A stretch of DNA of 64,000 bases from Myxococcales bacterium (GTDB lineage Bacteria > Myxococcota_A > Polyangia > Polyangiales > Houyiibacteriaceae), in the NCBI GenBank assembly GCA_029863605.1, contig JAOTVB010000018.1, forward strand, positions 1 through 64,000, in the 5' to 3' direction. The position numbers were made by a program, and so were the translations under genes. The notes beneath the pieces are model-generated. The model did not search any database. It saw nothing but the letters and a program-made list of their open reading frames with translations, and had not been told where the DNA came from. Positions 12,628-64,000 of this stretch are shown here, piece by piece (the stretch's first letter is position 1; each line of letters begins with the position of its first letter).

Positions 12628-12640
12628 AGGTTGAACTTAG

Positions 12641-12751
12641 ATGGCTGACAAAAAGCGCAAACCCGATGAAGAGGCTTCGTTTTGGTTTACATGGACGATG
12701 GCAGGAGCCGCGCTTTTCATCGCCGTTGTCTTCGCTTTCATTCTGAGCTGA
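12641..12751 (+). CDS. 36-residue single-helix membrane peptide in the ACIII-oxidase operon
   Basis: A tiny reading frame, 13 bases after the diheme cytochrome gene and 15 bases before coxB. It encodes a charged head (MADKKRKPDEEASFWF) and one hydrophobic helix of about 19 residues ending at the C-terminus, TWTMAGAALFIAVVFAFIL. GAACTTAGATG precedes the start, with only a weak AAGG ribosome-binding site further up. The position, strand and positive-inside head fit a single-span accessory subunit of the complex III-oxidase supercomplex or of the oxidase, comparable in kind to small subunits found in purified respiratory complexes. No homologue can be named by eye. Confidence 0.7.
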   Translation: MADKKRKPDEEASFWFTWTMAGAALFIAVVFAFILS

Positions 12752-12766
12752 GTTGGGAGGACCCGC

Positions 12767-13513: not shown

Positions 13514-13524
13514 ATGGTATAGAT

Positions 13525-15255: not shown

Positions 15256-15265
15256 CGAGGCACCG

Positions 15266-15841
<576 letters not shown>

Positions 15842-15862
15842 GGGCTTGAGGGACTACGAATC

Positions 15863-16291: not shown

Positions 16292-16309
16292 AGAAAGGAG
16301 GAACATCAC

Positions 16310-16900
16310 ATGCCGGATGACGCACTAGGTCGCCCCTACCAGGTCCCGGTCAAGCGTGAGCCGCTCCTCCCTAACGGTGTGATGGGGATGCTGATCTTCG
16401 TCGCGACCGAGGTCATGTTCTTCTCTGGCCTCATCAGCGCCTTCGTGATCGGCAAGAGCAACGCAATCGGCGGCTGGCCGCCACCGGGTCAACCGCGTCT
16501 CCCCGTCGAGGAGACTGCGTTCAACACCGCCGCCCTCCTTGCAAGCGGCGTTTGTCTCTACTTCGCCAATCGAGCGTTTCGCGAAGGCGCAGCTCGGGCC
16601 AAGGGTTTGTTGCTCGCGTCGATCCTCCTTGGAGGGTTCTTCGTGCTGTTCCAAGGCGCCGAATGGGTCGCGCTCGTGCGCGAAGGGCTCACCCTGACCT
16701 CGGGCCAGCTCGGTGGGTTTTTCTATCTCATCGTCGGGACGCACGCGCTTCACGTGGTCGCTGGCTTTGCAATCCTGCTCTACACGTACAACAAGCTCGC
16801 GCACGGCGACCTGAGCCGCTTCACGTTCTGGCCGGCACAGATTTTTTGGTACTTCGTTGTCGGGGTTTGGCCGGTACTCTATTGGCTGGTGTACTTGTGA
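16310..16900 (+). CDS. coxC: Cytochrome c oxidase subunit III, second copy
   Basis: A 196-residue membrane protein of the subunit III family: FVATEVMFFSGLISAFV holds the conserved Glu, and IVGTHALHVVAGFAILLY and FWPAQIFWYFVVGVWPVLYWLVYL match the C-terminal helices. It is clearly distinct from the copy at 15266, with different loops and an NSPVEETAFNT-like loop here (LPVEETAFNTAALLASG). GGAGG precedes the ATG. Because long subunit III proteins have seven helices and these two have about five each, both may be needed, or one may belong to the ACIII-oxidase interface. GTGA overlap with the next gene. Confidence 0.88.
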   Translation: MPDDALGRPYQVPVKREPLLPNGVMGMLIFVATEVMFFSGLISAFVIGKSNAIGGWPPPGQPRLPVEETAFNTAALLASGVCLYFANRAFREGAARAKGLLLASILLGGFFVLFQGAEWVALVREGLTLTSGQLGGFFYLIVGTHALHVVAGFAILLYTYNKLAHGDLSRFTFWPAQIFWYFVVGVWPVLYWLVYL

Positions 16901-46019: not shown

Positions 46020-46922
46020 CTAGTCCGTCGTCTTAATCTTCGGGGGCAGGACGAAGATGAAGCCGATGTTGATCATCTGGTTGAACTGCCTCTGGCGATC
46101 GGAGCTGTTGATTTGGCCGTCGGGGAAGCCGCCGTCTGGGCCCGCTTCGTCGGTACCGCCCGTGTTCCATTTGAAGGGAAAGGCCCGCCACCGGATAGCG
46201 ATCCCCATGAACTCCTTGAAGTAGGCTTGAAAGGCCACGCCGAACGACGGCGCGATCGCGACTCGCTTGGAGCGCGCCAGTTGGCTCCCGAGGCACCCAG
46301 TGTCCATTGCCGGTGGATCGCAGAGCTGTGTGCCATCTGGCGCGACCTGGATGCTGGTGTCCGATCGCTCGGTGATCCCCACGAATGCCGCCCCGACGAA
46401 GAAGTCCAGGTCTGCATCGAAGAAGACCTTCTGGAACATCGCGAGCTTGCCTCGAAAGGGCGTGAAATGGACGTCCGCACCGGCCATCCAATTCATCCGA
46501 CCAACCTGATCAGGAAAGTTCTCCCGGCTCGGGAGGCTCAAGCGGTTGCGGTTTGTGGTGACCCCTTTGTCCCGCACTTGCCGGGTGAGGTCGGTGTTTA
46601 GATTGACGAATGACCCGCCACCCCAGCCGCCGATGCCTAGCCAATCCAAGAAACTGAAGCGGACCTCCCCGCCGAAGATCAGCGCGCGCGAATAGTCGTC
46701 TCCGACCGTGAACGCGAAAAACGGCTCGAGCTGAAGCCTGTTCTTACGCCAAAGTCGAAGCTTCATGACGGCTGGCTTGTCCGCCAGCGGACCGGTGACG
46801 TGAACTTCCTGTGCGCTAGCCGAGTGGGTTCCCGACCACAGGCCGTCGCCGACCAGTAGGCAGGAAGCGACCGCCACCGTAATGCCGATTCGCGAAAGCG
46901 TTTTGCGTGCGAGATTCATCAT
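46020..46922 (-). CDS. Outer-membrane beta-barrel protein (myxobacterial OMP type), second of a pair
   Basis: A 300-residue exported protein with a signal peptide (IGITVAVASCLLVGDGLWS ... SASA) and alternating amphipathic strands through to a terminal strand (MINIGFIFVLPPKI). Segments RLQLEPFFAFTVGDDYSRALIFGGEVRF and MNWMAGADVHFTPFRGKLAMFQK match the paralogue at 46919 (RFEIAPSAAFTVND, YVPFYGKFSMFRK), so the genes arose by duplication. This is the outer-membrane beta-barrel family frequent in myxobacteria, which includes Glt barrels. Two Cys (QLCDPPAMDTGC) sit in one extracellular loop. ATGA overlap with the upstream gene shows cotranslation. Confidence 0.78.
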   Translation of the reverse strand: MMNLARKTLSRIGITVAVASCLLVGDGLWSGTHSASAQEVHVTGPLADKPAVMKLRLWRKNRLQLEPFFAFTVGDDYSRALIFGGEVRFSFLDWLGIGGWGGGSFVNLNTDLTRQVRDKGVTTNRNRLSLPSRENFPDQVGRMNWMAGADVHFTPFRGKLAMFQKVFFDADLDFFVGAAFVGITERSDTSIQVAPDGTQLCDPPAMDTGCLGSQLARSKRVAIAPSFGVAFQAYFKEFMGIAIRWRAFPFKWNTGGTDEAGPDGGFPDGQINSSDRQRQFNQMINIGFIFVLPPKIKTTD

Positions 46923-47833
46923 TTCGGTAACCGGTATTCGAACTTAATCGGTAGGAACAGGGTGAAGCCGAACTGCACCGTCAGGTTGTTGAAGAAGGTC
47001 GAGCTCCCTGCGAGCCAAGTCGAAGGGTCGTCGCGATTTGCCGGATCGACATTCACGTTCTCGAACTTTTCGAGGAACATGTAGTCGCGGAACTCGGTGA
47101 AGAACGTCAGGTAGCGCGTCAAAAAGATTCGTAGGCCGATGCCGACGTTGAACGATACCTGCATGTCCCAGTTGAACTCGCGAATTTCCGGGTCGAACAC
47201 CGGAATCGGCTTGGTGCGCATGACACCCACGCCGCCGATAAGATAGGAGTCCCACTGGAAGAGGAACTTCCTGAACATGGAGAACTTCCCGTAGAAGGGC
47301 ACGTAGGTGAAGTTGGCCCAGAGCCCAAACTGCCACTCGTTGATCGGCACGCCCAACCGGAATGAGCGCTGAATCTGTTCGACCAGCGTGGTGCCGCGCT
47401 CGAGCGGATTACCCCAGTCATACCAAATGAAGTTGACCCCGATCGCCAGCACGTTGGTGAACCAGTAGTTCGCGGCCACGCCGAACCCTGGGTGCCGCAA
47501 GTACTTGTCGTTGACCGTGAATGCGGCCGAGGGGGCGATCTCGAATCGCTTGAGGCGGAGTGCGTAGATCTGCTGCACGGCATAGATCTCTTCGACGGTC
47601 TCTTCGCGCGCCGGCACGGGCTCTTCTGGGCCTTCGACTTCCTTTTCGGCGGCCAGCTGCTCGATCAGGTCGCCTTCTTCCTTGGCGTCCTTGCCGACCT
47701 TCTTCTGCGCCGCTCGGTTTGGTCCTTCGTCCTCGACTTCGTCGAGGGAGAACTCCATCTGGGCTCCCACCGATGTGGGCAGCGCTGCGCAAAGCGCCGC
47801 CAACAGTAGCGTGATCCCCCCAAATTCTCGCAT
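46919..47833 (-). CDS. Outer-membrane beta-barrel protein with acidic N-terminal segment, first of a pair
   Basis: 304 residues. The signal peptide (ITLLLAALCAALPTSVGA) is followed by about 70 highly charged, helical residues (EVEDEGPNRAAQKKVGKDAKEE, EVEGPEEPVPAREETVEEIY), then a barrel with strands such as RFEIAPSAAFTVNDKYLRHPG, NVLAIGVNFIWYDWG, TYVPFYGKFSMFRKFLFQWD and a last strand FGFTLFLPIKFEYRLPK. The charged segment would lie in the periplasm and may contact other envelope proteins. The ATG at 47833 is used rather than a TTG at 47902, because it begins the signal peptide. Paralogous to the next gene. Confidence 0.78.
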   Translation of the reverse strand: MREFGGITLLLAALCAALPTSVGAQMEFSLDEVEDEGPNRAAQKKVGKDAKEEGDLIEQLAAEKEVEGPEEPVPAREETVEEIYAVQQIYALRLKRFEIAPSAAFTVNDKYLRHPGFGVAANYWFTNVLAIGVNFIWYDWGNPLERGTTLVEQIQRSFRLGVPINEWQFGLWANFTYVPFYGKFSMFRKFLFQWDSYLIGGVGVMRTKPIPVFDPEIREFNWDMQVSFNVGIGLRIFLTRYLTFFTEFRDYMFLEKFENVNVDPANRDDPSTWLAGSSTFFNNLTVQFGFTLFLPIKFEYRLPK

Positions 47834-49229: not shown

Positions 49230-49379
49230 TCGACCTCTGTAAGCCCCCGGTGGTCGTTGGGACCGCCGCAATATAGAGACGCCAGGCCTCCGCCGTCAAC
49301 GCGGCTGAGCGTGAGGAATCGGTTGCCCCTCGGTCGAGGGGGCGGTGATACTGGAAACGTTGGGGAAGGGCGGGGACTT

Positions 49380-50204
49380 TTGACGCGGCACTTCGTAGTA
49401 CGGCGTGGTTGGCGACCAGTGGTCGTGATCGCCTTGCTGTTCGCCACCGCGGTTCACGCCGACGGACGACCGGACTACCTCATCCGCCTCTTGCGCAACT
49501 CGGATGCCTTCCGAGTTCGCGCCCAGGCTGCACTGTCACTCGGCCAGCTCGACCCGAGCCCTAAATCGGTGGCCGCGCTCGAGCGCGCCGCCCGTGACAG
49601 ACACCCAGCGGTGCGGGTCTCGGCGATCTCGTCGTTACGCCGACTAGGTGCGAAAGAGGCCCTGCCGACCCTGAGACAAACGACACGGGATCGTAACAAG
49701 TCGGTTCGACGGGCCGCCGCCGAAGCGGTCGCTGAGCTCGAAGCGATCGGACAGCGACGGCGCGGTCCCGGCGAGCCGAGGCATTTGGTCGCGGTGGGAA
49801 TGCCTGGTGCCCGAGCAGAGCGTGTTTCCCGTCAGATGCTTTTCGACGCCCGGATCTTCTTATCCGAGAAGCTGACCGAGCTCGCGGGGGTCGAGCTCGC
49901 TCCAGATGATTTGAGCCCGGCTGACGCCAAGCGCGAGATCGCGCAACGCAGGCTTCACGGCTACTACCTCGAAAGCTCGATCGTCACCCTGAAGCCGAAA
50001 GGAAACGGGGTCAGGGCGGAGGTGTCGATCATCATGCTGACCTATCCGGGTCGTGACATGCGCGCGATGCTTCGCGGGGCCGCGACCGCGTCGGGCCGGT
50101 ACAGCGCAGAGACAGCAGAGCAGGCCATCCACGGGGCGTTCGTCGGCGCACTTCGCCGGCTTCCGCAGGCGTTGGCGGCGGCCGACGCGAAAGGAAGCCT
50201 TTGA
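49380..50204 (+). CDS. Exported HEAT-repeat protein
   Basis: About 274 residues. A signal-like segment (RRGWRPVVVIALLFATAVHA) is followed by two or three HEAT-type repeats (RPDYLIRLLRNSDAFRVRAQAALSL, PKSVAALERAARDRHPAVRVSAISSL, EALPTLRQTTRDRNKSVRRAAAEAV), then an unrelated C-terminal domain of about 130 residues (FDARIFLSEKLTELAGVELAPDD, LHGYYLESSIVTLKPKGNGVRAEVSIIML). No ATG is available near the signal. A TTG at 49380 behind GGGCGGGGAC is the best start, but the frame is open up to 49257. It stands upstream of the HAMP gene with 38 bases between. Confidence 0.65.
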   Translation: MTRHFVVRRGWRPVVVIALLFATAVHADGRPDYLIRLLRNSDAFRVRAQAALSLGQLDPSPKSVAALERAARDRHPAVRVSAISSLRRLGAKEALPTLRQTTRDRNKSVRRAAAEAVAELEAIGQRRRGPGEPRHLVAVGMPGARAERVSRQMLFDARIFLSEKLTELAGVELAPDDLSPADAKREIAQRRLHGYYLESSIVTLKPKGNGVRAEVSIIMLTYPGRDMRAMLRGAATASGRYSAETAEQAIHGAFVGALRRLPQALAAADAKGSL

Positions 50205-50242
50205 CCGACGAAGACCGATGAGCGTAGGAAGAGAGAAACGCG

Positions 50243-50830
50243 ATGGACAGTAAGAGACAACGAAAACTGAGGAACTACCTCCTCGATCGGCGTTTTCAGC
50301 TCAAGTACACGAGCATGGTCGTGCTCGTGACGGTGTCGGTCGCAAGCGGCCTAGGCTACGTTGCCTATCGGTTTTCACGTGGGCAGACCGAATCGCTGAC
50401 GGCGCACATCGCAGCTCAACCCGACCTCGACATCGAGACCGCCGAGGACTTGGAGCGCTTCGCTCAACAGGAGGATCGCAAGATCCGAAACGCCATCGTC
50501 GTCGGCGTCCTTCTGCTCACGTTGGCCCTCGGAATCACCGGAATCCTGGTGACGCACCGCGTCGTCGGTCCTGCGTACCGAATGCGCCGCCTGTTCGAGG
50601 GGGTCGGCGAAGGGAAGCTCCGGGTCACGACGGGTATTCGTAAAGGCGACGAGCTTCAAGAGCTGTATCAATCCTTTGCGGACATGGTGGAGTCGTTGCG
50701 GGACCAGCGATCCGAAGAGATCGCGCGGCTCGAGGACACCCTTGCCAAGATGGAAGCGGCAGGGGTGGAGTCGGAGTACATCACGGAGCTTCGCGCCCTC
50801 CTAAAGCGGATCCGCGACACTGTCGACTAG
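50243..50830 (+). CDS. Two-helix membrane protein with HAMP domain only
   Basis: A 195-residue protein: cytoplasmic basic start (KRQRKLRNYLLDRRFQLKY), first helix (SMVVLVTVSVASGLGYVAY), a short periplasmic loop of about 45 residues, second helix (AIVVGVLLLTLALGITGILV), then a HAMP domain (THRVVGPAYRMRRLFEGVGEGKLRV, IRKGDELQELYQSFADMVESL) and a coiled-coil tail. There is no kinase or chemoreceptor signalling domain. The loop is too short for a sensor fold. It may act as an adaptor that changes its coiled coil in response to membrane or partner signals. Confidence 0.75.
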   Translation: MDSKRQRKLRNYLLDRRFQLKYTSMVVLVTVSVASGLGYVAYRFSRGQTESLTAHIAAQPDLDIETAEDLERFAQQEDRKIRNAIVVGVLLLTLALGITGILVTHRVVGPAYRMRRLFEGVGEGKLRVTTGIRKGDELQELYQSFADMVESLRDQRSEEIARLEDTLAKMEAAGVESEYITELRALLKRIRDTVD

Positions 50831-52629: not shown

Positions 52630-54258
52630 ATGAAGTGGATCCACTTGTGGGCGGTGTCCGCGTTCGTTGTCAGCTTGTGGGTTGGTACGCCCGCCGACGC
52701 GCAGGACATGAGCTTCGGTCTCGAGGAGACGGGGCAGAGCGGTGCACCGGCGAAGCTCGGTAAACCGTCGAAGAGGCTGGCAGCGGCGTTGAGCGCATTC
52801 GAGTCCAAGGACTACGAGGAGGCGGCGATGGGTCTTCAGCGCGTTGCCGCAGGAAAGTCGAAGGACGGAAGGGGCAATCGACAGAAGGCCCAATTCATGT
52901 TGGGACAGGCGCTTTATGCGGCGGGCTACTACCAGTCCGCGCTTACCGTCTTCGACGAGGTCAGCGAGCAGGGCCCCGGTCATTTGTTTTTCGGCGATAC
53001 ACTCGCGTGGCTCGGCAAGCTCGCCTCGAAGCTCCCAGAGTCGTCGGGCATCATCGGGATCGTCGGGCGGTACGGGATCGGCGCACTCGGAGAGTTCAAA
53101 GAGAAAGACTCAGTCCTCTACAACCAGCTCCTCTACTTGATGGGACGTCATCTCTATGCGCAGGCGGACTTCCGCCAGGCCATCGACCTCTTCCAGGAAG
53201 TCGACCCGAGCTCCAAGCAGTACACATACGCGAAGTTCTTCGAAGGGATTTCGTTCATTCGCATGCGCCAGGCGCGTCCTGCGATCGCTTCGTTTCGTGC
53301 CATTCTCGACGTTGTCGACAGTGGTGATACCAAAGGCATCGACGAAGACCGGATGACCAACCTCGCCTGGATCTCGCTTGCTCGCGTCTATTACACCGCG
53401 GCTAACCAGGGAAAGGACATAGATGGAACGCTGTTGGGTCAGTCCGTCGAGTCCTGGAACAAGGTGTCGCAATCGAGCGAGTACTGGCTCGACGCGCTCT
53501 TCGAATCGTCATGGGCGTTTTTCTTAGCGGACGAATACTCCCGCTCGCTGGGCAACGTTCACACCCTGTTCTCGCCGTATTTCGAGGACTCGTTTTATCC
53601 CGAAGCACTCGTGCTCAAGGCCGTTACGTTCTTCGTGAACTGCCAGGTCGACAACGCCGATGCGACCGTAGCCAAGTTTCATAATCTGTATGACCCAGTC
53701 AAAGTCGAGCTCGACGCGGTGCTTTCCAAGCATCAGGACAACGCAGACTTCTTCGAATTCTTGAAAGCGGTTCGAGCTGGCAAGGCGGAACTTTCGCCGC
53801 GCGTGCGCCCCATCGTGGCCACGGCGCTGAGCGACCGTACCGTTCTTCAGCATCTCGAGTACGTTTCGATTCTCGATAAAGAGGAACGACTTCTGAGTAA
53901 GTCGAGCGCAGAGTTCCAGGGCTCGCCGGTTGGCGAAAAGATTCTCGAAGACACTTCTCTTGCAAAGGCGTTTGCGGTCGATCAGGCCGGCGACCTCGCA
54001 CGGGGGCGCTATAAGCGACTGATTCGAGAGCTTAGTGACCTCAGCAACCAGGTCGACACGGTGGAGCTCGAGATCGCCACGTTCCGGCGAGGGCAGATCG
54101 ATCAAGATCTTCAACAGCAGATGTCGCTGGCCAAGCAATCGAAGGGCGGCGACGTCGAAGTGGATGATGAACACCAACTATGGCCGTTCAATGGGGAGTA
54201 CTGGCGAGATGAGTTGGGGTTCTATCGACAACAGGTGACTAACCTATGTACGCGCTGA
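52630..54258 (+). CDS. Exported TPR protein (possibly GltC-like)
   Basis: 542 residues with a signal peptide (IHLWAVSAFVVSLWVGTPADA) followed by tetratricopeptide-like helical pairs over most of the length: LAAALSAFESKDYEEAAMGLQRV, AQFMLGQALYAAGYYQSALTVFDEV, LYLMGRHLYAQADFRQAIDLFQEVD, WISLARVYYTAANQG, LDALFESSWAFFLADEYSRSLG. It should act in the periplasm as a scaffold. Within this block it precedes the GltD-like gene and overlaps it by 13 bases. A TPR protein, GltC, belongs to the second Glt cluster in Myxococcus, so the comparison is only suggestive. AGGAG stands seven bases before the ATG. Confidence 0.75.
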   Translation: MKWIHLWAVSAFVVSLWVGTPADAQDMSFGLEETGQSGAPAKLGKPSKRLAAALSAFESKDYEEAAMGLQRVAAGKSKDGRGNRQKAQFMLGQALYAAGYYQSALTVFDEVSEQGPGHLFFGDTLAWLGKLASKLPESSGIIGIVGRYGIGALGEFKEKDSVLYNQLLYLMGRHLYAQADFRQAIDLFQEVDPSSKQYTYAKFFEGISFIRMRQARPAIASFRAILDVVDSGDTKGIDEDRMTNLAWISLARVYYTAANQGKDIDGTLLGQSVESWNKVSQSSEYWLDALFESSWAFFLADEYSRSLGNVHTLFSPYFEDSFYPEALVLKAVTFFVNCQVDNADATVAKFHNLYDPVKVELDAVLSKHQDNADFFEFLKAVRAGKAELSPRVRPIVATALSDRTVLQHLEYVSILDKEERLLSKSSAEFQGSPVGEKILEDTSLAKAFAVDQAGDLARGRYKRLIRELSDLSNQVDTVELEIATFRRGQIDQDLQQQMSLAKQSKGGDVEVDDEHQLWPFNGEYWRDELGFYRQQVTNLCTR

Positions 54259-57200
54259 ACAAATCGAAATGCGTCGCGAGCTTCCTCTTCGGGTCGTTCG
54301 TCGTCGTGATGGGGGGCGAGGCCGCGGCAGAGCAAGCGCCGATGAGCCTCGAGGCCGTTTGCATCCCGGAGACCACCGAGCAGGCGATTGCTGCCTGTCC
54401 TGCCGGTGCCCGGAAGGGGAGTGCCAAGGAGGGCGGAAACGTTCCTGTTTCTCGGTTTCACGAGGCCGAGCGCAAGCAGACCAAGAAGCAGGGTCCAACG
54501 GGGCCGTCGCTTCAAATCGACATGAGCACCCGACTCGGACGCGAGCAGACCCGCGCCCGCACGGAGGCGTTGCTCAAGCGCGAGATCCAAATCCTCGAGC
54601 GGCTTGTGAAAAACAGCGCAGATGACGATCCAAGGCGGCCCGCGGTGTTGCTTCGACTCGCCGAGACGCAGTTCGAGATGCAGATCGCGCAAACGGCGAC
54701 CGTGAGGTCCTTCGACGACCCGATCTACGAGGCCTGCACGCGCGACAAGGATAAGGCGCGCTGCAAAGAGGCGCGGGAAGGTCAAAAGAAGGCCACGGCG
54801 GCGCTCGATGCGACCCGCAATGACAGCATTCGCACCTACGCGACCCTCGTCCGCGACCATCCGAATTTCAAACGGATGGATGAGGTCCTGTTCTCGTTAG
54901 CCTTCGCGCTCCAAGAACAAGACCAGTTCGACAAGGCTCGGGCGGTTTATCGGCGGTTGATCAAAGACTACCCGAAGAGCCGCTTCGTGCCGAACGCCTA
55001 TCTCTCGTTTGCGGAGTACTACTTCAACGACAGCGACATGGAGGCGGCGGGGAAGTTCTACCGTAAGGTCATCGAGTTTCCGCCGAAGAACAACTCGGTC
55101 TATGGCTACGCGCTCTATAAGATCGCGTGGGTCGAGTACAACCGGGAGCGGTATCGTCAGTCGTTGCAGGGGTTCGTCGACATTCTCGAGTTCGCCCGCA
55201 AGAACAAGTATGCCAACGACGCCAAGAACCTGGCGCGCCAGGCCCGAAAGGAGCTGGTGCTTCCGTATTCGCACTACGGGTCGCCCGGCAAGGCGCTCGA
55301 TTTCTTCCGTCGATACGCAAAGAGCGACGCCGAGGCTCACGAGATGCTCGAAAATCTGGCCGAGCTCTACTTCGATACCGGCCAGTGGCCCCAGGCGATT
55401 ACGGTCTACCACAAGCTGATGGCGGACGCGCCTCGCAGCAACTCGCTCTGTGACTGGCAGACGAAAGTCACCAACGCGGTGATTTCCTCGCGGCCGAATC
55501 AGGAGCAGATCATCGAGCTCAAGCGCTTGGTCGACATTTACCGGACCTTCAAGGAGGGCAGTAGGCCCGCTGCCAAGGTCGAGCAGTGCAAGTCCGAGAC
55601 GGCGACCACGATTCTTTGGCTCGCCACGTCGTGGCACCGCGAAGCCGTCGGGACTGACTCGGCTCCGGGAACCAAGAGCAAGAAGACGATGTCGCAGGCT
55701 TCCGTGCTCTACCGGACTCTTCTCAAAGAGTTCCCGGACATGGAACAAATGGAGTTCAAGAACATCGACCGTCGTGATTGGCCGACGGAATACAAGATTT
55801 CGTACTTCTACGCCGAACTTCTTTGGAAGATGGAGGAGTGGGGGCAGTGCGGTCCGGCGTTCGACGCCGTGGTCGAGCTGAATTCGCAGGGTGAGTTTAC
55901 GAGTGACGCAGCCTACGCAGCGGTGCTCTGTTACAACAACTTATATCAGCAGCAGTACGTTCCTCGCGAGACCAAGACGAAGTTCGTCAGCAAGCGAGAT
56001 CAAAAGTCGATGAAGAACGCCGAGCCCGCCGAAGCGGCCAAGTTCAAGAAGAAGCAGTTCACACCGCTTCAAAAGGGCATGCTGGAAGCGTTCAACCGAT
56101 ACGTTTGCTACGTCGACAAGGCCGAGGACCTCGCGACCATCAAGTATCGCCGCGCTCGAATCTACTACGAGGCAAACCGTTTCGAGGAAGCTGCCGTCCT
56201 GTTCCGCGACATCGCATTCAATCACAAGGACAGCGAGCTTTCAGAGTACGCCGCGAACCTCTACCTCGATTGCTTGAACATCCTCGGCACGCAGCTCGCG
56301 GAGCCGCGCGTGGCTTGCGTGCAGGAGCTCGGCGCTTCGATCGACCCGATGTCGGCGTCCTTCTGCGGTACCGAGCAACTCGCCGAGGAGCATCCCGACC
56401 TCTGCGGCAGCCTCAGCACGCTTCAGTGTCAGGTGCGTCGGAAGGAAGCCGAGACTTACGAAAAAACGCAGCAATTCAAGAAAGCAGCTGCAACGTATGT
56501 TCGCATTTTCCGGCGTCACCAGGAGTGCGGCGAGATGGACGAGGTCCTCTACAACGCGGCGATCAACTTCGAGGCGGCTCACCTGCTCGGCCGTGCGATT
56601 CAGGTTCGAACGGTGATGATCGAGCGCTACCCGCAGAGTGCCCTCTCCAAGAAGGCCGTCTATTTGATCGGTCAGAACTTCCAGGCGCTGGCGTACTACG
56701 AGCAGGCCGCCAAGTACTACGAGCAGTTCGCGAGGAAGTTTCCCGGTGAGGACGGCACGAAGTGCGACGCCGACGACAAGAAGGCGGGCATCTGTCCGAA
56801 CGCCATCGAGGGTCTCGAGCAAGCTACCTTCTTCCGCATCGGCCTAGGCGACGATCAAGCAGCCATGGAAGACGCGGACCTCTTTGCCCGCAACTACCGG
56901 CGCAAGCTTCCGCGGCAGACGTCGCAAGTCATGTTCTCCATCGGCTCGATCTACGAGCGACAGAACCGACCTTCCCAGGTGATCTCGCACTACCAGGAGT
57001 ATCTGAAGAAGTATGGCAAAGTGGGGACGCCGCATCAGATCATCCAGGCGAACACCGCCATCGGCCGAGCGTACTGGCAGCTCAACAGGAAGAACGAGGC
57101 CAAGAAGTACTTCTCGACTGCGGTCAAGGGTTGGACCTCGGGTGCGCCAAAGAGGATTCGAGGGCTCAACGATACTTCGAAGGAGACCAAGGCTGCGTTC

Positions 57201-57863
57201 ATGCGAGAAGCGCTCGATAGCGCTGCCGAATCGCAGTTTTACCTGTCCGAATACAAGTTCGCCGAGTTCGCGAAGGTCGCCTTCCCGAAGTACACGGGCG
57301 GCAAGAGCGCTGCGAAGGTGAAGAAGTGGTCGGAAACCGAGTTCAAACGGTGGGTGACGAAGAAGCTCGGGGTGCTTCGCGCGGCCGAGGCCGATTACGC
57401 CAAGGTCGCTAAGATGACGGTCACGCTCGACGGCATCAAAATGCAGTCGGCTCCGTGGCAGATCGCGGCCGCGTCGCGGACCGGTGAGATGTACCGGAGC
57501 TTCGTCGACGAGTTCCGGGATGCTCCGATTCCACGCGAAATCGAAAAGGACCCAGGGCTCTTCGATATCTATGTGGGTGCTCTCGACGACGCCTCCGAGC
57601 CGCTTCAGCGGCAGGCGATCGACAAGTTCGAGTTCTGCCTGAAGACCGCCACGCAGGTGCGATGGTTCAACAAGTGGTCGCGCTCCTGTGAGAGCGAGCT
57701 CAACGCGCTCAACCCGAAGCAATATCCCGTCGCGGCTGAGCTCCGCGGCGAGCCCAATTACGTGAAGCACACGGTCGGAGAGCCCGGTGCGGTGGATCTG
57801 GGCGCCATCAAAGACACGTCGCTGACGTCCAAGGATGCCGTCGCGGAAAGGGGGAAGCCGTGA
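54246..57863 (+). CDS. Giant exported TPR protein (GltD-like)
   Basis: 1205 residues: signal peptide (CVASFLFGSFVVVMGGEAAA), a low-complexity stretch, then at least a dozen TPR-like helix pairs from about residue 100 onward (VLLRLAETQFEMQIAQ, VLFSLAFALQEQDQFDKARAVYRRLIKDYPKSRFV, AYLSFAEYYFNDSDMEAAGKFYRKV, LAELYFDTGQWPQAITVYHKL, AVYLIGQNFQALAYYEQAAKYYEQF, IGSIYERQNRPSQVISHYQEYLKKYG). Basic, Lys-rich segments lie between repeats. Size, export signal and position just before a TPR lipoprotein match GltD of the Myxococcus gliding (Glt) complex. AGGTGA precedes the ATG, which overlaps the previous gene; its own stop overlaps the next GTG. Confidence 0.75.
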   Translation: MYALNKSKCVASFLFGSFVVVMGGEAAAEQAPMSLEAVCIPETTEQAIAACPAGARKGSAKEGGNVPVSRFHEAERKQTKKQGPTGPSLQIDMSTRLGREQTRARTEALLKREIQILERLVKNSADDDPRRPAVLLRLAETQFEMQIAQTATVRSFDDPIYEACTRDKDKARCKEAREGQKKATAALDATRNDSIRTYATLVRDHPNFKRMDEVLFSLAFALQEQDQFDKARAVYRRLIKDYPKSRFVPNAYLSFAEYYFNDSDMEAAGKFYRKVIEFPPKNNSVYGYALYKIAWVEYNRERYRQSLQGFVDILEFARKNKYANDAKNLARQARKELVLPYSHYGSPGKALDFFRRYAKSDAEAHEMLENLAELYFDTGQWPQAITVYHKLMADAPRSNSLCDWQTKVTNAVISSRPNQEQIIELKRLVDIYRTFKEGSRPAAKVEQCKSETATTILWLATSWHREAVGTDSAPGTKSKKTMSQASVLYRTLLKEFPDMEQMEFKNIDRRDWPTEYKISYFYAELLWKMEEWGQCGPAFDAVVELNSQGEFTSDAAYAAVLCYNNLYQQQYVPRETKTKFVSKRDQKSMKNAEPAEAAKFKKKQFTPLQKGMLEAFNRYVCYVDKAEDLATIKYRRARIYYEANRFEEAAVLFRDIAFNHKDSELSEYAANLYLDCLNILGTQLAEPRVACVQELGASIDPMSASFCGTEQLAEEHPDLCGSLSTLQCQVRRKEAETYEKTQQFKKAAATYVRIFRRHQECGEMDEVLYNAAINFEAAHLLGRAIQVRTVMIERYPQSALSKKAVYLIGQNFQALAYYEQAAKYYEQFARKFPGEDGTKCDADDKKAGICPNAIEGLEQATFFRIGLGDDQAAMEDADLFARNYRRKLPRQTSQVMFSIGSIYERQNRPSQVISHYQEYLKKYGKVGTPHQIIQANTAIGRAYWQLNRKNEAKKYFSTAVKGWTSGAPKRIRGLNDTSKETKAAFMREALDSAAESQFYLSEYKFAEFAKVAFPKYTGGKSAAKVKKWSETEFKRWVTKKLGVLRAAEADYAKVAKMTVTLDGIKMQSAPWQIAAASRTGEMYRSFVDEFRDAPIPREIEKDPGLFDIYVGALDDASEPLQRQAIDKFEFCLKTATQVRWFNKWSRSCESELNALNPKQYPVAAELRGEPNYVKHTVGEPGAVDLGAIKDTSLTSKDAVAERGKP

Positions 57864-59137
57864 CGCGATATCGCAAATTGGCAGTCGTCATCGCTATGCT
57901 CGTGGTGGGCTGCGGTGGTGGTGAAGGCGTGAAGAAAGAGACCGTCCCGAAGGCTGATGTCGCCCGCACCGCAGGGGGCGAGGCGATCACGACCGCCGAC
58001 GGTAGCGCCGTCAGCAAGAAGGCACACAACCGATGGGGATCCGCTCTCGACGATTTCGAACAGAACGAGAAGGCGGGCTGGACTCCGGCCAAGTGTGGCG
58101 CCTCTTCGAGGGACTTCGAAAAAGCCGCCGCCGCGCAAGGCGGTGGATTCGCCGAGGCTCACTACATGGCCGGGCTCGCTCTTGAGCGTTGTGGTGATAG
58201 CGGAGCCAAGAAGCATTACGAGACGGCTCTCAAAGTTGACCCGAAGTTCTGCAAGGCCCGAGTGGCGCTCGCCCTCGAAGATTTGGAGGGCGGGAAAGCC
58301 AGCCAGGCCAAGTCCGAGTTTGAAAGGGCCATCAAAGACGATCCGCAGTGCACGTCGGGGTACACCAACCTTGCCATCGTGCAACGGGCACAAGGGCAGG
58401 ACGACGAGGCGCTCAAGAACCTTCGTCGCGCGCTCGCGATCGAGTCAGATTACCTGGCCGCCTTCAACCAGATGGCACTCCTTCACTACGATCGCGGTCG
58501 CAAAGGCAACGCCGCCGAGCTCGACCTTGCCGAGGTCGTCTGCCGCCAGGCCCAGATGATCGATGCGGACTATGCGCCGATCTACAATACGTGGGGCTTG
58601 ATCAAGGTCTACAAGGGCGATGTCATCGCGGCGCTTCGGTTCTTTCAGAAGGCTATCACGCTCGATCCGGATCTCTTCGAAGCACAAATGAACTTCGGCG
58701 AGGTGACGATTTCGTTTCGCGGCTACGAGGACGGACGCAAGGCGTTTGAACGGGCGGTCGCCCTCCAGCCGGACAACTACGAGGCTATCATCGGGCTCGG
58801 CAGCGCCCTTCGAGGCTTGGACCGCTTTCCGGAGGCCCAGGCCCAATACGAACGAGCGCAGAAACTCGACCCGCGCCGTCCCGAGGCGTACTTCAATCTA
58901 GGGGTGCTCTACCAAGACTACATGTCGGGTTCAGTGGTTGATTTGAAGAAAGCGAAGCAATACTTCACCGACTTCGTGCAAAAGGCGGGCAACCGACCCG
59001 AGTTTCGTTCGAACGTGGCCGATGTGAACAATCGATGCGGGCAGAAGCCGAGCAAAAAGCGCGGCGCGCCGAAGTGTCGACCCGGACGCATGCAGAACAT
59101 CAACATCTCCATCGAGGCCATGCAGGTCGCGGGTTAG
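57860..59137 (+). CDS. TPR lipoprotein (GltE/AglT-like)
   Basis: 425 residues. The GTG start is in a GTGA overlap. The lipoprotein signal (KLAVVIAMLVVGC) is followed by a variable stretch, then eight or so TPRs (AEAHYMAGLALERCGDSGAKKHYETALKVDP, TSGYTNLAIVQRAQGQDDEALKNLRRALAIE, YAPIYNTWGLIKVYKGDVIAALRFFQKAITLDP, PEAYFNLGVLYQDY). The C-terminal tail has three Cys and ends MQNINISIEAMQ. In Myxococcus xanthus, GltE (AglT) is a TPR lipoprotein encoded between GltD and the small GltF, the same order as here. Predicted outer-membrane or periplasmic component of the trans-envelope complex. Confidence 0.78.
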   Translation: MTRYRKLAVVIAMLVVGCGGGEGVKKETVPKADVARTAGGEAITTADGSAVSKKAHNRWGSALDDFEQNEKAGWTPAKCGASSRDFEKAAAAQGGGFAEAHYMAGLALERCGDSGAKKHYETALKVDPKFCKARVALALEDLEGGKASQAKSEFERAIKDDPQCTSGYTNLAIVQRAQGQDDEALKNLRRALAIESDYLAAFNQMALLHYDRGRKGNAAELDLAEVVCRQAQMIDADYAPIYNTWGLIKVYKGDVIAALRFFQKAITLDPDLFEAQMNFGEVTISFRGYEDGRKAFERAVALQPDNYEAIIGLGSALRGLDRFPEAQAQYERAQKLDPRRPEAYFNLGVLYQDYMSGSVVDLKKAKQYFTDFVQKAGNRPEFRSNVADVNNRCGQKPSKKRGAPKCRPGRMQNINISIEAMQVAG

Positions 59138-59146
59138 GTGGCAAAC

Positions 59147-59419
59147 ATGAGCAAAACGACTTCGAGGTTCGCTTTACAAACACTTGTTTTCATTGGGTTG
59201 CTGGCGATGGCCTCTTTGGTTTCGACGCCGACCGTCCAAGCGCAGTCGGGGCCGGCACCGGAAACGACCTATGACTTCGAGGATGACCTCGTCACCGGCG
59301 ATTTGATTCGACCCGATGGCGAGCAATTGATCGTTCGCCGTCGCGGGCGCCGAGCGTCGCTGATTCAGATTCGCGAGCATTTTATTCCCGAGATGCTGAA
59401 ATCTGTGGAAGATTTGTAG
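59147..59419 (+). CDS. Small exported protein (GltF/CglF-like)
   Basis: 90 residues: signal peptide (LQTLVFIGLLAMASLVSTPTVQA), an acidic segment (TTYDFEDDLVTGDLIRPDGE) and a C-terminal part IVRRRGRRASLIQIREHFIPEMLKSVEDL. The ending with FIPEMLKS-V-E-D-L and the DD(L)xxGDLIRPDGE pattern are what I associate with the CglF/GltF protein of the Myxococcus gliding cluster, which sits between GltE and GltG. The ATG at 59147 with AGGTGG upstream is chosen over a GTG at 59138. Periplasmic location expected. Confidence 0.7.
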   Translation: MSKTTSRFALQTLVFIGLLAMASLVSTPTVQAQSGPAPETTYDFEDDLVTGDLIRPDGEQLIVRRRGRRASLIQIREHFIPEMLKSVEDL

Positions 59420-59431
59420 TGGGGGTTTCGG

Positions 59432-61453
59432 GTGAGTGATTCGAGTCACAATACTTCGGTTGCTTTCTCCGTTTATGACGGGGACGAGCTGCTCGGCACT
59501 GAAACGCTGAGTCAAGAGATCATCAAGATCGGTCGGCTTCAGACGAGCGACGTTCGTCTCGAGGACGACAAGGTCAGTCGCATGCACGCGGTCATCGAGG
59601 TCGCGGCGCCAGGGGAGGTCTACATCATCGACCTCGGTTCCGCTTCGGGAACTCTCGTCAATGGCGACAAGGTCAACAAGCGCAAGCTTCAGACCGGCGA
59701 CATAATCCAGATCGGCCACAAGCGGATCCACGTCGACATCATCACGGGTAAGGTGGCCATGGCGTCGAGCCCGCCCGTCGCCATGGCGGTGGGTGCCGAG
59801 CGTCAGACGCCGGTCGTCGACGAGCATGCGATGACCTCAATGCTCGACGAGGAGTCCGAGCCGCGACAAAAAGCCGTGGTCGAAGAGGCCGAGGATGACT
59901 CCGGCCCCAAGTTCAACCCGTTCGAGGTGGGGGCCAGGCGGCTCTCGCGTACGCCTTTTGCCAATACCGTTGGTGAAGATGGGGACGAGTACCGCCTGAT
60001 CGCGACGACCGGCGCGGTACCTTCTCACGAGATCGAAACCAACGAACGCGCGATCGAGGTCTCGGTGCTCTGGGGTGACAAGAGCGTCCTGAACGTCGAT
60101 TATTTGAAGCCTGCGCGGGATTACTACGTCGGCGAGCCCAATGGCGAAGAAGTAGACTTCATACTCGGCCACGACGCGATCGGAGTCGACCGTATGCCGC
60201 TTTGCCTCGCACAGGGCGAAGGCGTGACCGCGATCATTCCAGAAGGCGCCAAGGGCGAGGCGACGATTGGTGAGCAGACGCGTTCCTTTGACCTGATGCG
60301 CGGGCAGGGCGAGCTTCGCCCGAGCAGCGCGATGGCTGGCGCGATGGAGTTTCCAGTACCCGAAGGCGGGGCGGTTCGGATGACGCACCGCGACTTCACC
60401 TTCATCGTCAAAGACGTAAAGGCCGGCAAGAAGGTTGCGGGTCACGCCAAGATCGACGTCCGCCCAATGATCTACGTCGCTGGCGCAGCGCTCTTCGCGA
60501 GCCTCGTGTTGACGATGTTCTACTTCCAGCCTCCGCGCCCCCGTGGCCTTTCTTCAGATCTGCTCAGCACCGATTCGCGTCTGATCCAGTTCTTGATGGA
60601 GCCTGAGGAGCTTGAAGAGCCAGAGCCCGAGTGGCTCAACGGTGCGGATTCGTCCGGTGGCGGCACAGGCAAGGCCCACGAGGGCGAGCAGGGCCAGATG
60701 GGCGACGAAAAGGCCGAGAAGAATCGCAATAAGTACGGCATCCAAGGGCCGGAGGACAATCCCGATCCGCAGATGGCGCGCGAGCAAGCCGAGCAAGAAG
60801 CACGGACGGCTGGAATCATCGGGACGCTGGCAGCCATGCAAGGCTCGTTCAACTCTCCGACCTCGCCGTACGGTGCCGACTTCGCTCTCGGCAACGATCC
60901 GATGAGCGCCCTTGGAGCCATGACGGGCGACGACATCGGTCAGAACTTCGGGTTCGGCGGCCTCGGTCTGCGAGGCACGGGGCGAGGTGGTGGCGGCCTA
61001 GGCCAAGGCACCATCGGCATGGGCAACTTCGGCACGATAGGCCGAGGGGGCGGTCGCGGTGCAGGCGAGGGTGGCTACGGCCGCGGCGCGGGCGGGTTCC
61101 GCGGGCGGTCAGCAGGGGTTCCTCAGGTCCGCAGTGGCGGCGCCGAGGTGCGCGGCTCACTCTCGAAGGAAGTCATCCGACGCGTGGTCCGACGCCATAT
61201 CAACGAGGTGAAGTTCTGCTACGAGCAGCAGCTCAACGCGCGTCCCGATCTTCAGGGACGAGTCACGACGCGGTTCGTGATCTCACCGACCGGCTCCGTC
61301 CAGTCTGCGATGGTAGCGAGCTCGAGCCTCCGCAACGAGGCAGTCGAAAGCTGCATCGTGCGTGCGGTTCGCAGGTGGACCTTCCCGGCACCCGACGGGG
61401 GCGGCGTGGTGGTCGTGAACTATCCGTTCCTTCTCGACGCCGCGGGCCAGTGA
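59432..61453 (+). CDS. FHA-transmembrane-TonB-type energy transducer (GltG-like, AgmX/PglI C-terminal domain)
   Basis: 673 residues with three parts. A cytoplasmic FHA domain at about 24-103 (KIGRLQTSDVRLEDDKVSRMHAVIE, DLGSASGTLVNGDKV) should bind phosphothreonine. A beta-rich region to about 340 is followed by one transmembrane helix (YVAGAALFASLVLTMFYF, about 346-366). The periplasmic part has an acidic/Gly-rich linker (long Gly/Arg/Phe stretch at about 505-570) and a C-terminal TonB-like AgmX/PglI domain at about 573-670 (IRRVVRRHINEVKFCYEQQL, GRVTTRFVISPTGSVQSAMVASSSL, RRWTFPAPDGGGVVVVNYPF). This is the architecture of GltG. It would connect the inner-membrane motor to periplasmic and outer-membrane proteins. 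GTG start. Confidence 0.85.
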   Translation: MSDSSHNTSVAFSVYDGDELLGTETLSQEIIKIGRLQTSDVRLEDDKVSRMHAVIEVAAPGEVYIIDLGSASGTLVNGDKVNKRKLQTGDIIQIGHKRIHVDIITGKVAMASSPPVAMAVGAERQTPVVDEHAMTSMLDEESEPRQKAVVEEAEDDSGPKFNPFEVGARRLSRTPFANTVGEDGDEYRLIATTGAVPSHEIETNERAIEVSVLWGDKSVLNVDYLKPARDYYVGEPNGEEVDFILGHDAIGVDRMPLCLAQGEGVTAIIPEGAKGEATIGEQTRSFDLMRGQGELRPSSAMAGAMEFPVPEGGAVRMTHRDFTFIVKDVKAGKKVAGHAKIDVRPMIYVAGAALFASLVLTMFYFQPPRPRGLSSDLLSTDSRLIQFLMEPEELEEPEPEWLNGADSSGGGTGKAHEGEQGQMGDEKAEKNRNKYGIQGPEDNPDPQMAREQAEQEARTAGIIGTLAAMQGSFNSPTSPYGADFALGNDPMSALGAMTGDDIGQNFGFGGLGLRGTGRGGGGLGQGTIGMGNFGTIGRGGGRGAGEGGYGRGAGGFRGRSAGVPQVRSGGAEVRGSLSKEVIRRVVRRHINEVKFCYEQQLNARPDLQGRVTTRFVISPTGSVQSAMVASSSLRNEAVESCIVRAVRRWTFPAPDGGGVVVVNYPFLLDAAGQ

Positions 61454-61504
61454 CCCTTGGGTCGCCGGCCGAAAAGCGCGTTTTCCCCCTAATATCCCGG
61501 ATTT

Positions 61505-61532
61505 CCAGCCCTGTTCCCACGTTCAGGGCTGG
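61505..61532 (+). terminator. Stem-loop after the GltG-like gene
   Basis: CCAGCCCTG (61505-61513) / CAGGGCTGG (61524-61532), a perfect 9-base-pair stem with a 10-base loop, 51 bases after the stop. No U-tract follows, so it may act as an mRNA 3'-end stabiliser or attenuate read-through into the next genes. The 206-base gap 61454-61659 also holds the promoter-like pair at 61593. Confidence 0.4.
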
Positions 61533-61592
61533 CGGGCTGTCTGCGGCTTCGCCAAAAAGGCGGAAACGCTTGAAAAATAGCTTAGTTTAGAG

Positions 61593-61622
61593 TTGTTGGC
61601 TGCACGACAAATGCTGTAGGAT
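61593..61622 (+). promoter_or_regulatory. Candidate promoter for the TPR lipoprotein gene
   Basis: TTGTTG (61593-61598), an 18-base spacer and TAGGAT (61617-61622), in a short AT-richer stretch. The ATG at 61660 follows TAGGAGG, a near-perfect ribosome-binding site. Confidence 0.4.
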
Positions 61623-61659
61623 TGAAGTGCTTGTGAATTTCCAAGCGTAGGAGGCACGC

Positions 61660-62529
61660 ATGCGAGGTCACAAAATCGGCTTGGTTCTGGCCGGTCTAAT
61701 CCTGATGGGCGGCAACTGTTCGCGCGCCCGCGTGGAGTCGATGAACGAGATGAACGCTGGGGTCGAGTTGGCGCAGCTGAAGCGGTATAGCGAAGCCGCG
61801 GAGATGCTCGAGAAGGCGGCAGCTCTAGACCCAACCAACCACCAGGCCTACTTCAACCTGGCCATCGTCCAGATCGAACAGCGGAGCTTCTCCGCAGCTC
61901 GAGAGGCGCTGGAACGAGCTGTCGTCGCGCAACCGGACATGGCGGGTTATCACGAAAAGCTCGGCACCGTGCTCATTGAGCTCGAGGACTGGAAGGCTGC
62001 CGCGGCGTCTTTCAAGAAAGCGCTCGAGCTCGACCCGTCGCTCTTCAAGGCGCACTTCAAGCTTGGACGGGTCTACGAAGAGGTCGAGGATCCGCAGAAT
62101 GCCCTCTATCAGTACACGGACGCCATCAAGACGGGACCGCGATTCCTTCCGTCGTACTCGGCTCTCGGTCGGCTGTACGCTGACCTGCGCTACCCGGACA
62201 ATGCTGCCCAGGTGTTGCGGGAGGCGCTGAAGGTCGCGATGCCCGGCACCGAGGAGGAGGCGAACATCCATCATCTGCTCGGTACCGTGTACCAGCAGCA
62301 GCGCAAGTTCGACGACGCGGTCGTGGAGTTCCAGGCGGCGCTTGGCATTGTGCCAGGGATGCCAGATGCGCTCTTCGCGCTTGGCTGGACTTATGCTCTC
62401 CAAAACAATGACGAGGAGGCGAAGCGCTATCTGAACAAGTACGTGATGATGGCCGGGGCTGAAGCGCCAGAAAACTACGTCAAAGCCGCAAAAGATCGTC
62501 TTGCAGAGTTGAGGACCGAATCGCCGTAG
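61660..62529 (+). CDS. TPR lipoprotein
   Basis: 289 residues: signal (IGLVLAGLILMGGNC, Cys at about 20) and seven TPRs filling the rest (AGVELAQLKRYSEAAEMLEKAAALDP, AYFNLAIVQIEQRSFSAAREALERAV, YHEKLGTVLIELEDWKAAAASFKKALELDP, AHFKLGRVYEEVEDPQNALYQYTDAI, IHHLLGTVYQQQRKFDDAVVEFQAAL, ALFALGWTYALQNNDEEAKRYLNKYV). It faces the periplasm, anchored in a membrane; the residue after Cys is Ser, so outer-membrane sorting is plausible. In Myxococcus an outer-membrane barrel (GltH) occupies this place in the cluster, so the block is rearranged or the protein is lineage-specific. Confidence 0.8.
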   Translation: MRGHKIGLVLAGLILMGGNCSRARVESMNEMNAGVELAQLKRYSEAAEMLEKAAALDPTNHQAYFNLAIVQIEQRSFSAAREALERAVVAQPDMAGYHEKLGTVLIELEDWKAAAASFKKALELDPSLFKAHFKLGRVYEEVEDPQNALYQYTDAIKTGPRFLPSYSALGRLYADLRYPDNAAQVLREALKVAMPGTEEEANIHHLLGTVYQQQRKFDDAVVEFQAALGIVPGMPDALFALGWTYALQNNDEEAKRYLNKYVMMAGAEAPENYVKAAKDRLAELRTESP

Positions 62530-62544
62530 GGGGGCTGAGGCAAC

Positions 62545-64000
62545 ATGTCGGAAGAACACGAATCGGGGGATGAGGTTCTAGAGCTGACTGGGGATCAGGT
62601 CGCGGAGCTCGAAAAGCTCGACGACGCGATCGCGAAGTTCGAACAACAGAAGCGATGGTCGGACATGATCCGGTCCATACTCAAGAAGGCCGAGCTCCTC
62701 GTCGACAAGGACGAAAAAGCGCAGCTCTTCCGACAAGCCGGCACTCTCTATCTCGAGCGTTCGAGCAACCAGGCCGAGGCGATCAAGTGTTTCGAGCGGC
62801 TTCTCGAGCTCGATCCCAACGACGTCGATGCGCTTGGGCGTCTCAAGCAGATGTATGAGAAGCGTCGCGACTGGGAAAAGCTCATTAGCACGATGCGGCG
62901 GGAAGTGGAGCTGCTGCCCGAGGACGACCAGCTCATTCGATATGCCGAGATGGCCGATCTCGCGACGCAGCGACTGCGCAAGCCCGAAGTTTGCATCGAG
63001 CTCTGGCAGAAGGTGCTCGAGGCGGACCCGCAAAACCCGAACGCGCTTAGCAATCTTGCACAGCTTTATGAGCGCGCACGTCAGTGGGAGCCACTCGCCC
63101 TCGTGCTGGAAACGTTGATCGAGAGCGACACCGACGTCGTCCAGATGAAACAGCAGCTTCAAAAGCTGGGGATGATTTACGCCGACAAGGTAGGCAACGA
63201 CGAAGGGGCAATCAGTGCGTTCAAGAAGCTCCTCGAGCTCGATCCTTCGGATCGTCGAGCGCAAGAGCAGCTGAAGCGTCGTTACGTGTCGCTTGGGGCG
63301 TGGGACGAGCTCGAAACGTTTTATGCGCAAAACGAAAAGTGGGACGAGCTGATCCGCATCGTCGAGCGACAGGCTGAGGCGCAGGAAACCCCTCCTGAGG
63401 AGCGGATACCGCTCTTGTTTCGTGCGGCACGCCTTTGGGAAGACAAGAAAAACAAACGCGATCGCGCAGCGCGGGTCTATGAGAAGATCCTCGCGTCCGA
63501 TCCGAGCAACGTCCAAGCCGCCGAGGCGCTGACACCGATCTACGAGGACGCGCATGATGCTCGGAAGTTGGTCTCGGTCCTAGAGGTTCGGTTGGCACAC
63601 GCGACCGAGACCGAATCGAAGGTCGAGCTTCTCGGACGGATCGGTCTCGTCTTCGAGGAGCGACTTCGCCAGCCCGAGACCGCATTCGAGCGCTATCTCG
63701 AGGCGTTCGCGTTGGCGCCTTCAATGGAGGAAGCTCGCGTTCATGTCGAGCGGTTGGCCGGCGAGATGAACGGCTGGGACCGCCTCGTGTCGGGCTACGA
63801 GTCCGCGATCGGAGCGGTGTCGGACCCGCATCAGACAGTGCCGATCCGGCTCAGTTACGGCCAGACCTTGGCCGCGCTCGAACGCATCGACGACGCCGTC
63901 GAACAGTTCCGGCTGGTATACGATCTCGAAAGTGACAACCTGCCCGCGATCACCGCGCTGGGCGATCTCTACTTCCGCACCGAACGGTATCGCGACCTTC
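62545..64000 (+). CDS. Large cytoplasmic TPR protein, N-terminal 485 residues (GltI-like; runs off the window)
   Basis: Open to the window end with no stop. No signal peptide; the start is acidic (MSEEHESGDEVLELTGDQV). TPR-like units recur about every 35-40 residues: AQLFRQAGTLYLERSSNQAEAIKCFERLLELDP, IRYAEMADLATQRLRKPEVCIELWQKVLEADP, LSNLAQLYERARQWEPLALVLETLIE, AVSDPHQ...IRLSYGQTLAALERIDDAVEQFRLV. Giant TPR proteins of this look occur in myxobacterial Glt clusters as GltI, a cytoplasmic partner of the motor. The identification rests on position and repeats. AGG and GAGG precede the ATG at 62545, 15 bases after the TPR lipoprotein stop. Confidence 0.78.
   Translation, partial: MSEEHESGDEVLELTGDQVAELEKLDDAIAKFEQQKRWSDMIRSILKKAELLVDKDEKAQLFRQAGTLYLERSSNQAEAIKCFERLLELDPNDVDALGRLKQMYEKRRDWEKLISTMRREVELLPEDDQLIRYAEMADLATQRLRKPEVCIELWQKVLEADPQNPNALSNLAQLYERARQWEPLALVLETLIESDTDVVQMKQQLQKLGMIYADKVGNDEGAISAFKKLLELDPSDRRAQEQLKRRYVSLGAWDELETFYAQNEKWDELIRIVERQAEAQETPPEERIPLLFRAARLWEDKKNKRDRAARVYEKILASDPSNVQAAEALTPIYEDAHDARKLVSVLEVRLAHATETESKVELLGRIGLVFEERLRQPETAFERYLEAFALAPSMEEARVHVERLAGEMNGWDRLVSGYESAIGAVSDPHQTVPIRLSYGQTLAALERIDDAVEQFRLVYDLESDNLPAITALGDLYFRTERYRDL

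What the first reader, a model, noticed from the sequence alone, without database searches (positions are those of the whole stretch)
52630..64000. Glt-like trans-envelope machine encoded as a block
Exported TPR, giant TPR, TPR lipoprotein, small exported protein, FHA-TM-TonB protein, TPR lipoprotein and large cytoplasmic TPR protein appear in nearly the order gltD-gltE-gltF-gltG...gltI of Myxococcus. The FHA domain implies control by Ser/Thr phosphorylation, and a Hanks kinase is encoded at 0.6-2.6 kb. The missing barrel and added TPR proteins suggest a variant machine, possibly not for gliding.
Basis: partly seen in the sequence, partly recalled or inferred. Interest (0 to 1): 0.6.

Follow-up and report, generated by a model that had tools for sequence, protein, structure and literature searches.

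The report
Gliding-type envelope motor gene cluster
[quoted passage not shown] it is an ordinary, widely conserved member of a known kind with a few details I have not seen described.

Summary
The block is real. It reads gltC-gltD-gltE-gltF-gltG-[TPR lipoprotein]-gltI on one strand, nearly gapless; gltI runs past the window to contig position 72,600 (3,351 aa). NCBIfam gliding models match GltC (E 2.3e-83), GltE, CglF/GltF and GltG (6.5e-117), all below the curated Myxococcus cut-offs; this block is the genome's best GltC and GltG locus.

Two claims fail. Barrels are not missing: two adjacent barrel-family genes lie at 46,020-47,833 (minus strand), linked to the block in relatives; one is predicted OmpA-like. 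The kinase, 50 kb away, shows no link.

Every component Luciano et al. (2011) listed for a potential glider has a homologue here (GltA/B at family level only). Gliding is the likeliest function, unproven.

Extras: a conserved TPR lipoprotein between G and I that has no Glt name in the papers read; an M48-protease-like, apparently inactive GltI end domain; a second, FHA-less Glt-like complex; two motors encoded back to back.

The parts
46020..46922 (-). Outer-membrane barrel-family protein, 300 aa, GltA/GltB-like (omp1)
   Evidence: TIGR04565 OMP_myx_plus 37.3 bits, E 2.6e-9, below cut-off 60; next to omp2 and syntenic with the block in same-order genomes
46919..47833 (-). Outer-membrane barrel protein, about 304 aa, GltA/GltB-like (omp2)
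   Evidence: TIGR04565 75.3 bits, above cut-off 60; AlphaFold2 model has 8 strands; Foldseek matches OmpA barrel 1qjp TMt 0.81, NspA E 2e-6
52630..54258 (+). gltC: exported TPR protein, 542 aa (start ATG 52630, signal peptide)
   Evidence: NF033756 E 2.3e-83, 281 bits, cut-off 450; best GltC locus of the genome
54246..57863 (+). gltD: giant exported TPR protein, 1205 aa
   Evidence: TPR families; position and homologues in relatives
57860..59137 (+). gltE: TPR lipoprotein, 425 aa (lipobox VVGC)
   Evidence: NF033758 E 3.9e-33, 115 bits, cut-off 225
59138..59419 (+). gltF (CglF): small exported protein, 93 aa
   Evidence: NF033764 E 4.9e-17, 61.7 bits, cut-off 90; C-terminal motif shared by relatives
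59432..61453 (+). gltG: FHA - one TM (about aa 343-361) - TonB_C-like tail, 673 aa
   Evidence: NF033760 E 6.5e-117, 391.7 bits, cut-off 650; NF033768 tail 115.6 bits, cut-off 40; TM segment
59522..59716 (+). FHA domain of GltG (aa 31-95)
   Evidence: PF00498 E 1.1e-18; GR, SRMH and NG positions intact
61660..62529 (+). lpX: TPR lipoprotein-like protein, 289 aa, between gltG and gltI; no Glt letter in the papers read
   Evidence: TPR families; same position in many families; clear lipobox in most relatives, GGNC here
62545..64000 (+). gltI (AgmK-like): cytoplasmic TPR scaffold, first 485 of 3351 aa; gene ends at contig position 72600
   Evidence: open frame on C5; homologues of 3351-4087 aa at the same position; no TM segment by hydropathy

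Best explanation
The block encodes the cytoplasm-to-outer-membrane transducer of an Agl-Glt-type machine. Working model: a proton-driven AglRQS-type triad in the inner membrane (the R2-Q2-S2 triad at C28:77986-79695) works on GltG, whose FHA domain faces the cytoplasm and whose TonB-like tail reaches the periplasm. GltI, a 3,351-aa TPR scaffold, docks the complex to cytoplasmic regulators such as the MglA/MglB GTPase switch encoded elsewhere. Force passes through periplasmic GltD, GltE, GltF, the extra TPR lipoprotein and GltC to a pair of outer-membrane barrels (46020-47833). Most likely use: surface gliding. Shown: the genes, their family matches, synteny and the motors' presence. Inferred: protein contacts, which motor serves which complex, and the function.
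For: Gliding models match GltC, GltE, CglF, GltG and the C5 block is the genome's best GltC and GltG locus. Motor: four MotA/ExbB proteins; two sit in TolQ+TolR+TolR triads, the others look like Tol-Pal and ExbBD-TonB by gene context. In a concatenated R+Q+S tree the R2 triad groups (support 100) with the triad next to a type-A gltG in G040, the R1 triad (93) with triads inside type-B clusters. Barrels: TIGR04565, OmpA-like model, near the block in same-order genomes and in f13 genome G094; a TIGR04565 barrel directly precedes gltC in G171. In M. xanthus GltA and GltB are mutually stabilising barrels that bind GltC (PMC4488436). MglA E 1.5e-101, MglB 5.9e-64 to the PDB proteins. Two proteins with GltJ's Zn-ribbon + GYF domains; one matches solved AgmX domains. 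Luciano et al. speculate that AglRQS + GltC,D,E,F,G,A,B marks a potential glider (PMC3169522).
Against: No NCBIfam gliding cut-off is met. No M. xanthus Glt sequence could be compared directly. GltH, GltK and the CglB adhesin were not tested. omp1 scores below the barrel family cut-off, and TIGR04565 need not be limited to GltA/GltB. The motor is not linked to the block in this genome. The organism is known only as an assembly, so no phenotype exists. Nfs, a close paralogue, works in sporulation.
Confidence: 0.68

Rival explanations
1. Same machine, different cargo: an Nfs-like or ancestral surface-polymer transporter that moves envelope polysaccharide or coat material rather than the cell.
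For: Nfs is a close paralogue of Glt and rotates a carbohydrate polymer at the spore surface with the Agl motor (PMC3858216 abstract; PMC3169522). GltC and GltG score below the Myxococcus equivalog cut-offs. Many genomes with this block are uncultured, with no motility record.
Against: The nfs cluster lacks GltI, J and K homologues, whereas this block carries gltI and the genome has GltJ-like proteins and mglA-mglB.
Confidence: 0.22
2. A Tol-Pal or TonB-type envelope energiser that merely shares TPR, TonB_C and TolQR parts with Glt.
For: TonB_C-like tail and TolQ/TolR homology.
Against: Tol-Pal-like and ExbBD-TonB-like loci are present separately; GltC, GltE, CglF and GltG models outscore the other models for these proteins.
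Confidence: 0.04
3. Variant of the best explanation: the R1 triad, not R2, drives the C5 complex, or both complexes share motors.
For: The two triads lie back to back; in M. xanthus the Agl motor also works with Nfs (PMC3858216).
Against: Tree placement with linked clusters.
Confidence: 0.25

Closest known systems
Agl-Glt gliding machinery of Myxococcus xanthus (clusters G1, G2, M1)
   Same: GltC,D,E,F,G,I homologues; AglRQS-type triads, barrel pair, GltJ-like proteins, MglA and MglB in the genome
   Different: gltC joined to gltD-I in one block; TPR lipoprotein between G and I; no gltH or gltJ in the block; barrels on the opposite strand 5 kb upstream; model scores below cut-off
Nfs sporulation machinery of M. 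xanthus
   Same: Shares homologues of C,D,E,F,G and of the barrels (PMC3169522)
   Different: Nfs lacks GltI, J and K homologues; gltI is present here
Core complex (gltC,D,E,G + aglRQS) of other Proteobacteria and Fibrobacter
   Same: Shared group-B genes
   Different: Here also gltF, gltI and barrels; motor not in the block
M48-type metalloproteases (BepA, Ste24p)
   Same: Predicted fold of the GltI C-terminal domain
   Different: No HExxH in any of 14 GltI homologues; likely not an active protease

Membership tests
Agl-Glt machine (broad kind) | gltC, gltD, gltE, gltG encoded together | tested here: met
   gltD by position and homologues, as no GltD model was hit
Agl-Glt machine (broad kind) | AglRQS-type proton motor: one TolQ-like and two TolR-like proteins | tested here: met
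   Two triads at C28:75748-79695
Agl-Glt machine (broad kind) | GltF and outer-membrane barrels GltA/GltB | tested here: inconclusive
   GltF model hit; two barrel-family genes linked in relatives, but one-to-one orthology with GltA and GltB not shown
M. xanthus Glt equivalog families (NCBIfam GltC, GltE, CglF, GltG) | Score above curated cut-off | tested here: not met
   281/450, 115/225, 61.7/90, 391.7/650 bits; so not filed as these equivalogs
M. xanthus gliding machine | GltI scaffold after GltG | tested here: inconclusive
   Position, size class and TPR content fit (M. xanthus 4132 aa, here 3351 aa); no M. xanthus sequence to align
M. xanthus gliding machine | GltJ (Zn ribbon, GYF, TonB-like tail) | tested here: inconclusive
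   Two proteins with this architecture at C28:166738-168564 and C31:8196-9908, but below the GltJ cut-off
M. xanthus gliding machine | MglA/MglB switch | tested here: met
   C21:5056-5646 and 5666-6148
M. xanthus gliding machine | GltH, GltK/CglC, CglB adhesin | not tested
   No usable reference sequence or model at hand
M. xanthus gliding machine | Powers gliding at focal adhesions | not testable with these tools
   Uncultured organism
Nfs sporulation system | Homologues of G1/G2 genes without GltI, J, K | tested here: not met
   gltI present in the block
Active M48 peptidase (GltI C-terminus) | HExxH zinc motif | tested here: not met
   Absent from 14 full-length homologues

The most novel reading that the evidence does not exclude
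One bacterium runs two separate proton-driven trans-envelope machines, an FHA-bearing type A (C5) and an FHA-less type B (C10), each with a dedicated motor triad, the two triads being encoded back to back; and the type A scaffold GltI ends in a retired M48-protease fold used for docking.
Probability: 0.4. Interest if true: 0.55.

Novelty: new member of a known kind. Interest (0 to 1): 0.4.

Why it matters
A single-block layout, gltC through gltI with barrels nearby, recurs across the phylum. This suggests that the split G1/G2 arrangement of M. xanthus may be derived, and it gives a cleaner part list than M. xanthus alone. It makes testable which parts are universal (the extra lipoprotein, the GltI end domain) and predicts gliding in many uncultured lineages.

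Tried and rejected
Direct comparison with M. xanthus Glt proteins: no clear Myxococcus locus surfaced (no GltJ or GltG hit over the cut-off in 187 and 377 phylum genomes; one GltC hit over it, in G171); the single genome-contig scan returned only uncultured close relatives. GltJ at E 1e-60 found nothing, probably because the protein matches in separate domains. PADLOC gave no defence hits for the motors, so a Zorya-like system is not indicated. The kinase as dedicated regulator: rejected for lack of linkage. The MglA paralogue at C5:82653 as the gliding MglA: set aside, since the C21 copy is the strong match with mglB beside it. No Pfam family or PDB sequence explained the GltI C-terminus; only the fold comparison did. 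A literature search for MXAN_4864/4865 (agmV), between gltH and gltI in M. xanthus, gave nothing that settles whether it corresponds to the extra lipoprotein.

Full report
The window is the first 64 kb of contig C5 (84,277 bases) of a 4.2 Mb Myxococcota assembly. Its nearest named relatives are uncultured 'Myxococcales' and 'Deltaproteobacteria' assemblies. One single-contig genome of the same order has 10,327,335 bases, which I take from memory to be Sandaracinus; this is not a test.

Observation. Seven genes follow one another on the plus strand from 52,630. NCBIfam adds names: gene 1 is GltC-like (E 2.3e-83), gene 3 GltE-like (3.9e-33), gene 4 CglF/GltF-like (4.9e-17), gene 5 GltG-like (6.5e-117) with the AgmX/PglI tail above its cut-off. 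None of the gliding equivalog models reaches its curated cut-off, so the proteins are homologues, not certified equivalogs. In whole-genome searches the C5 block is the best locus for both GltC (280 bits, next 75) and GltG (391 bits, next 165). The last gene continues to 72,600 and encodes 3,351 aa.

Conservation. A GltG relative was found in 135 of 144 genomes of the class and a GltC match in 177 of 235 genomes of the phylum. Of 20 loci fetched around GltG homologues, 17 hold gltC-D-E(-F)-G. The TPR lipoprotein and gltI usually follow where the contig continues, except in three f13 loci, where a hisS-like gene follows. The full block through gltI also occurs in families f41, f31 and f26. Full-length GltI homologues measure 3,351-4,087 aa; M. 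xanthus GltI has 4,132.

Barrels. Two adjacent minus-strand genes at 46,020-47,833, separated from the block by ftsY (minus) and by HEAT-repeat and HAMP genes (plus), belong to or resemble the OMP_myx_plus barrel family (75.3 bits, cut-off 60; and 37.3 bits). The better-scoring one has an 8-stranded predicted barrel (only 9 sequences, mean pLDDT 67, strands mostly 70-90) matching OmpA (1qjp, TMt 0.81). One or both of the pair keep their place near the block in the seven same-order genomes checked with enough upstream sequence (G024, G031, G165, G309, G140, G150, G062; only one of the two was recognised in G309 and in G150) and in the f13 genome G094. In G171 a barrel of this family directly precedes gltC. 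In M. xanthus GltA and GltB are mutually stabilising barrels that bind GltC (PMC4488436). In more distant genomes the barrels were not seen next to the block.

Motor. The genome has four MotA/TolQ/ExbB proteins. By gene context, C28:642 kb looks like Tol-Pal and C49 like ExbBD-TonB. The other two are back to back at C28:75,748-79,695, each followed by two ExbD/TolR proteins. The divergent pair of TolQ-like genes is kept in seven same-order genomes, this one included. A tree of concatenated R, Q and S proteins puts R2 with the triad next to a type-A gltG in G040 (support 100) and R1 with triads sitting in type-B clusters (93). The second, type-B complex of this genome is at C10:14,577 to about 26,000: GltC-, D-, E- and G-like genes, the G without the canonical FHA residues, then a 214-aa protein and a porin-like gene. 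The pairing of R2 with C5 is inference.

Other parts. MglA (C21:5,056-5,646) and MglB (5,666-6,148) match the solved MglA and MglB at E 1.5e-101 and 5.9e-64. Two proteins have GltJ's Zn-ribbon and GYF domains; one hits the solved AgmX Zn-ribbon and GYF domains. With these, every component of the list that Luciano et al. call a potential glider (AglR,Q,S, GltC,D,E,F,G,A,B; PMC3169522) has a homologue here, GltA/B only at family level.

GltI end domain. The last 260 aa are conserved and predicted with mean pLDDT 88; the leading fold matches are gluzincin metalloproteases (Foldseek, weak E-values; VIA-align BepA and 3c37 Z 8.7). The tool warns that Z under about 8, or more for helical folds, can reflect a common arrangement. 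The likely active-site helix reads GRHLSYYRGEH; no HExxH exists in any of 14 homologues. I read it as a retired protease fold used for binding, with moderate confidence.

FHA and kinase. The FHA residues expected to bind phospho-Thr are present. The kinase at 570-2,624 is real and carries a match to an MshE-type c-di-GMP domain, but no linkage ties it to GltG.

Verdict. Shown: block identity, conservation, barrel genes nearby, motors and regulators in the genome. Inferred: assembly into one machine, motor pairing, gliding. Known kind; interest moderate, for the part list and the side findings.

Noticed in passing
G000 C10:14577-26000 (L023:8578-20000): Second Glt-like complex: GltC-, D-, E-, G-like (no FHA match), a 214-aa protein and a porin-like gene.
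   Followed up: partly
G000 C28:75748-79695 (L008:7749-11696): Two AglRQS-type triads encoded back to back, the divergent pair kept in seven same-order genomes.
   Followed up: yes
L006:1699-2598 (C5:71698-72597): GltI C-terminal domain with an M48-like predicted fold but no zinc motif.
   Followed up: yes
window 570-2624 (-): Ser/Thr kinase with a match to an MshE-type c-di-GMP-binding domain (39.9 bits, cut-off 38) and to DUF4388.
   Followed up: partly
C5:82653-83375 (L006:12654-13376) and C2:46974-47528: Two further MglA-family GTPases beside the MglA on C21.
   Followed up: no
window 49257-50830: Exported HEAT-repeat protein and HAMP-domain membrane protein that keep their place between ftsY and gltC in relatives.
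   Followed up: partly
L147 (G171 C212): A third type of cluster with R-Q-S, GltG-like, barrel and GltC/D-like genes; its motor forms a separate clade with some from G115, G176 and G239.
   Followed up: partly
window 4094-16900: Looks like an alternative complex III plus cytochrome oxidase gene run, judged from protein N-termini only.
   Followed up: no
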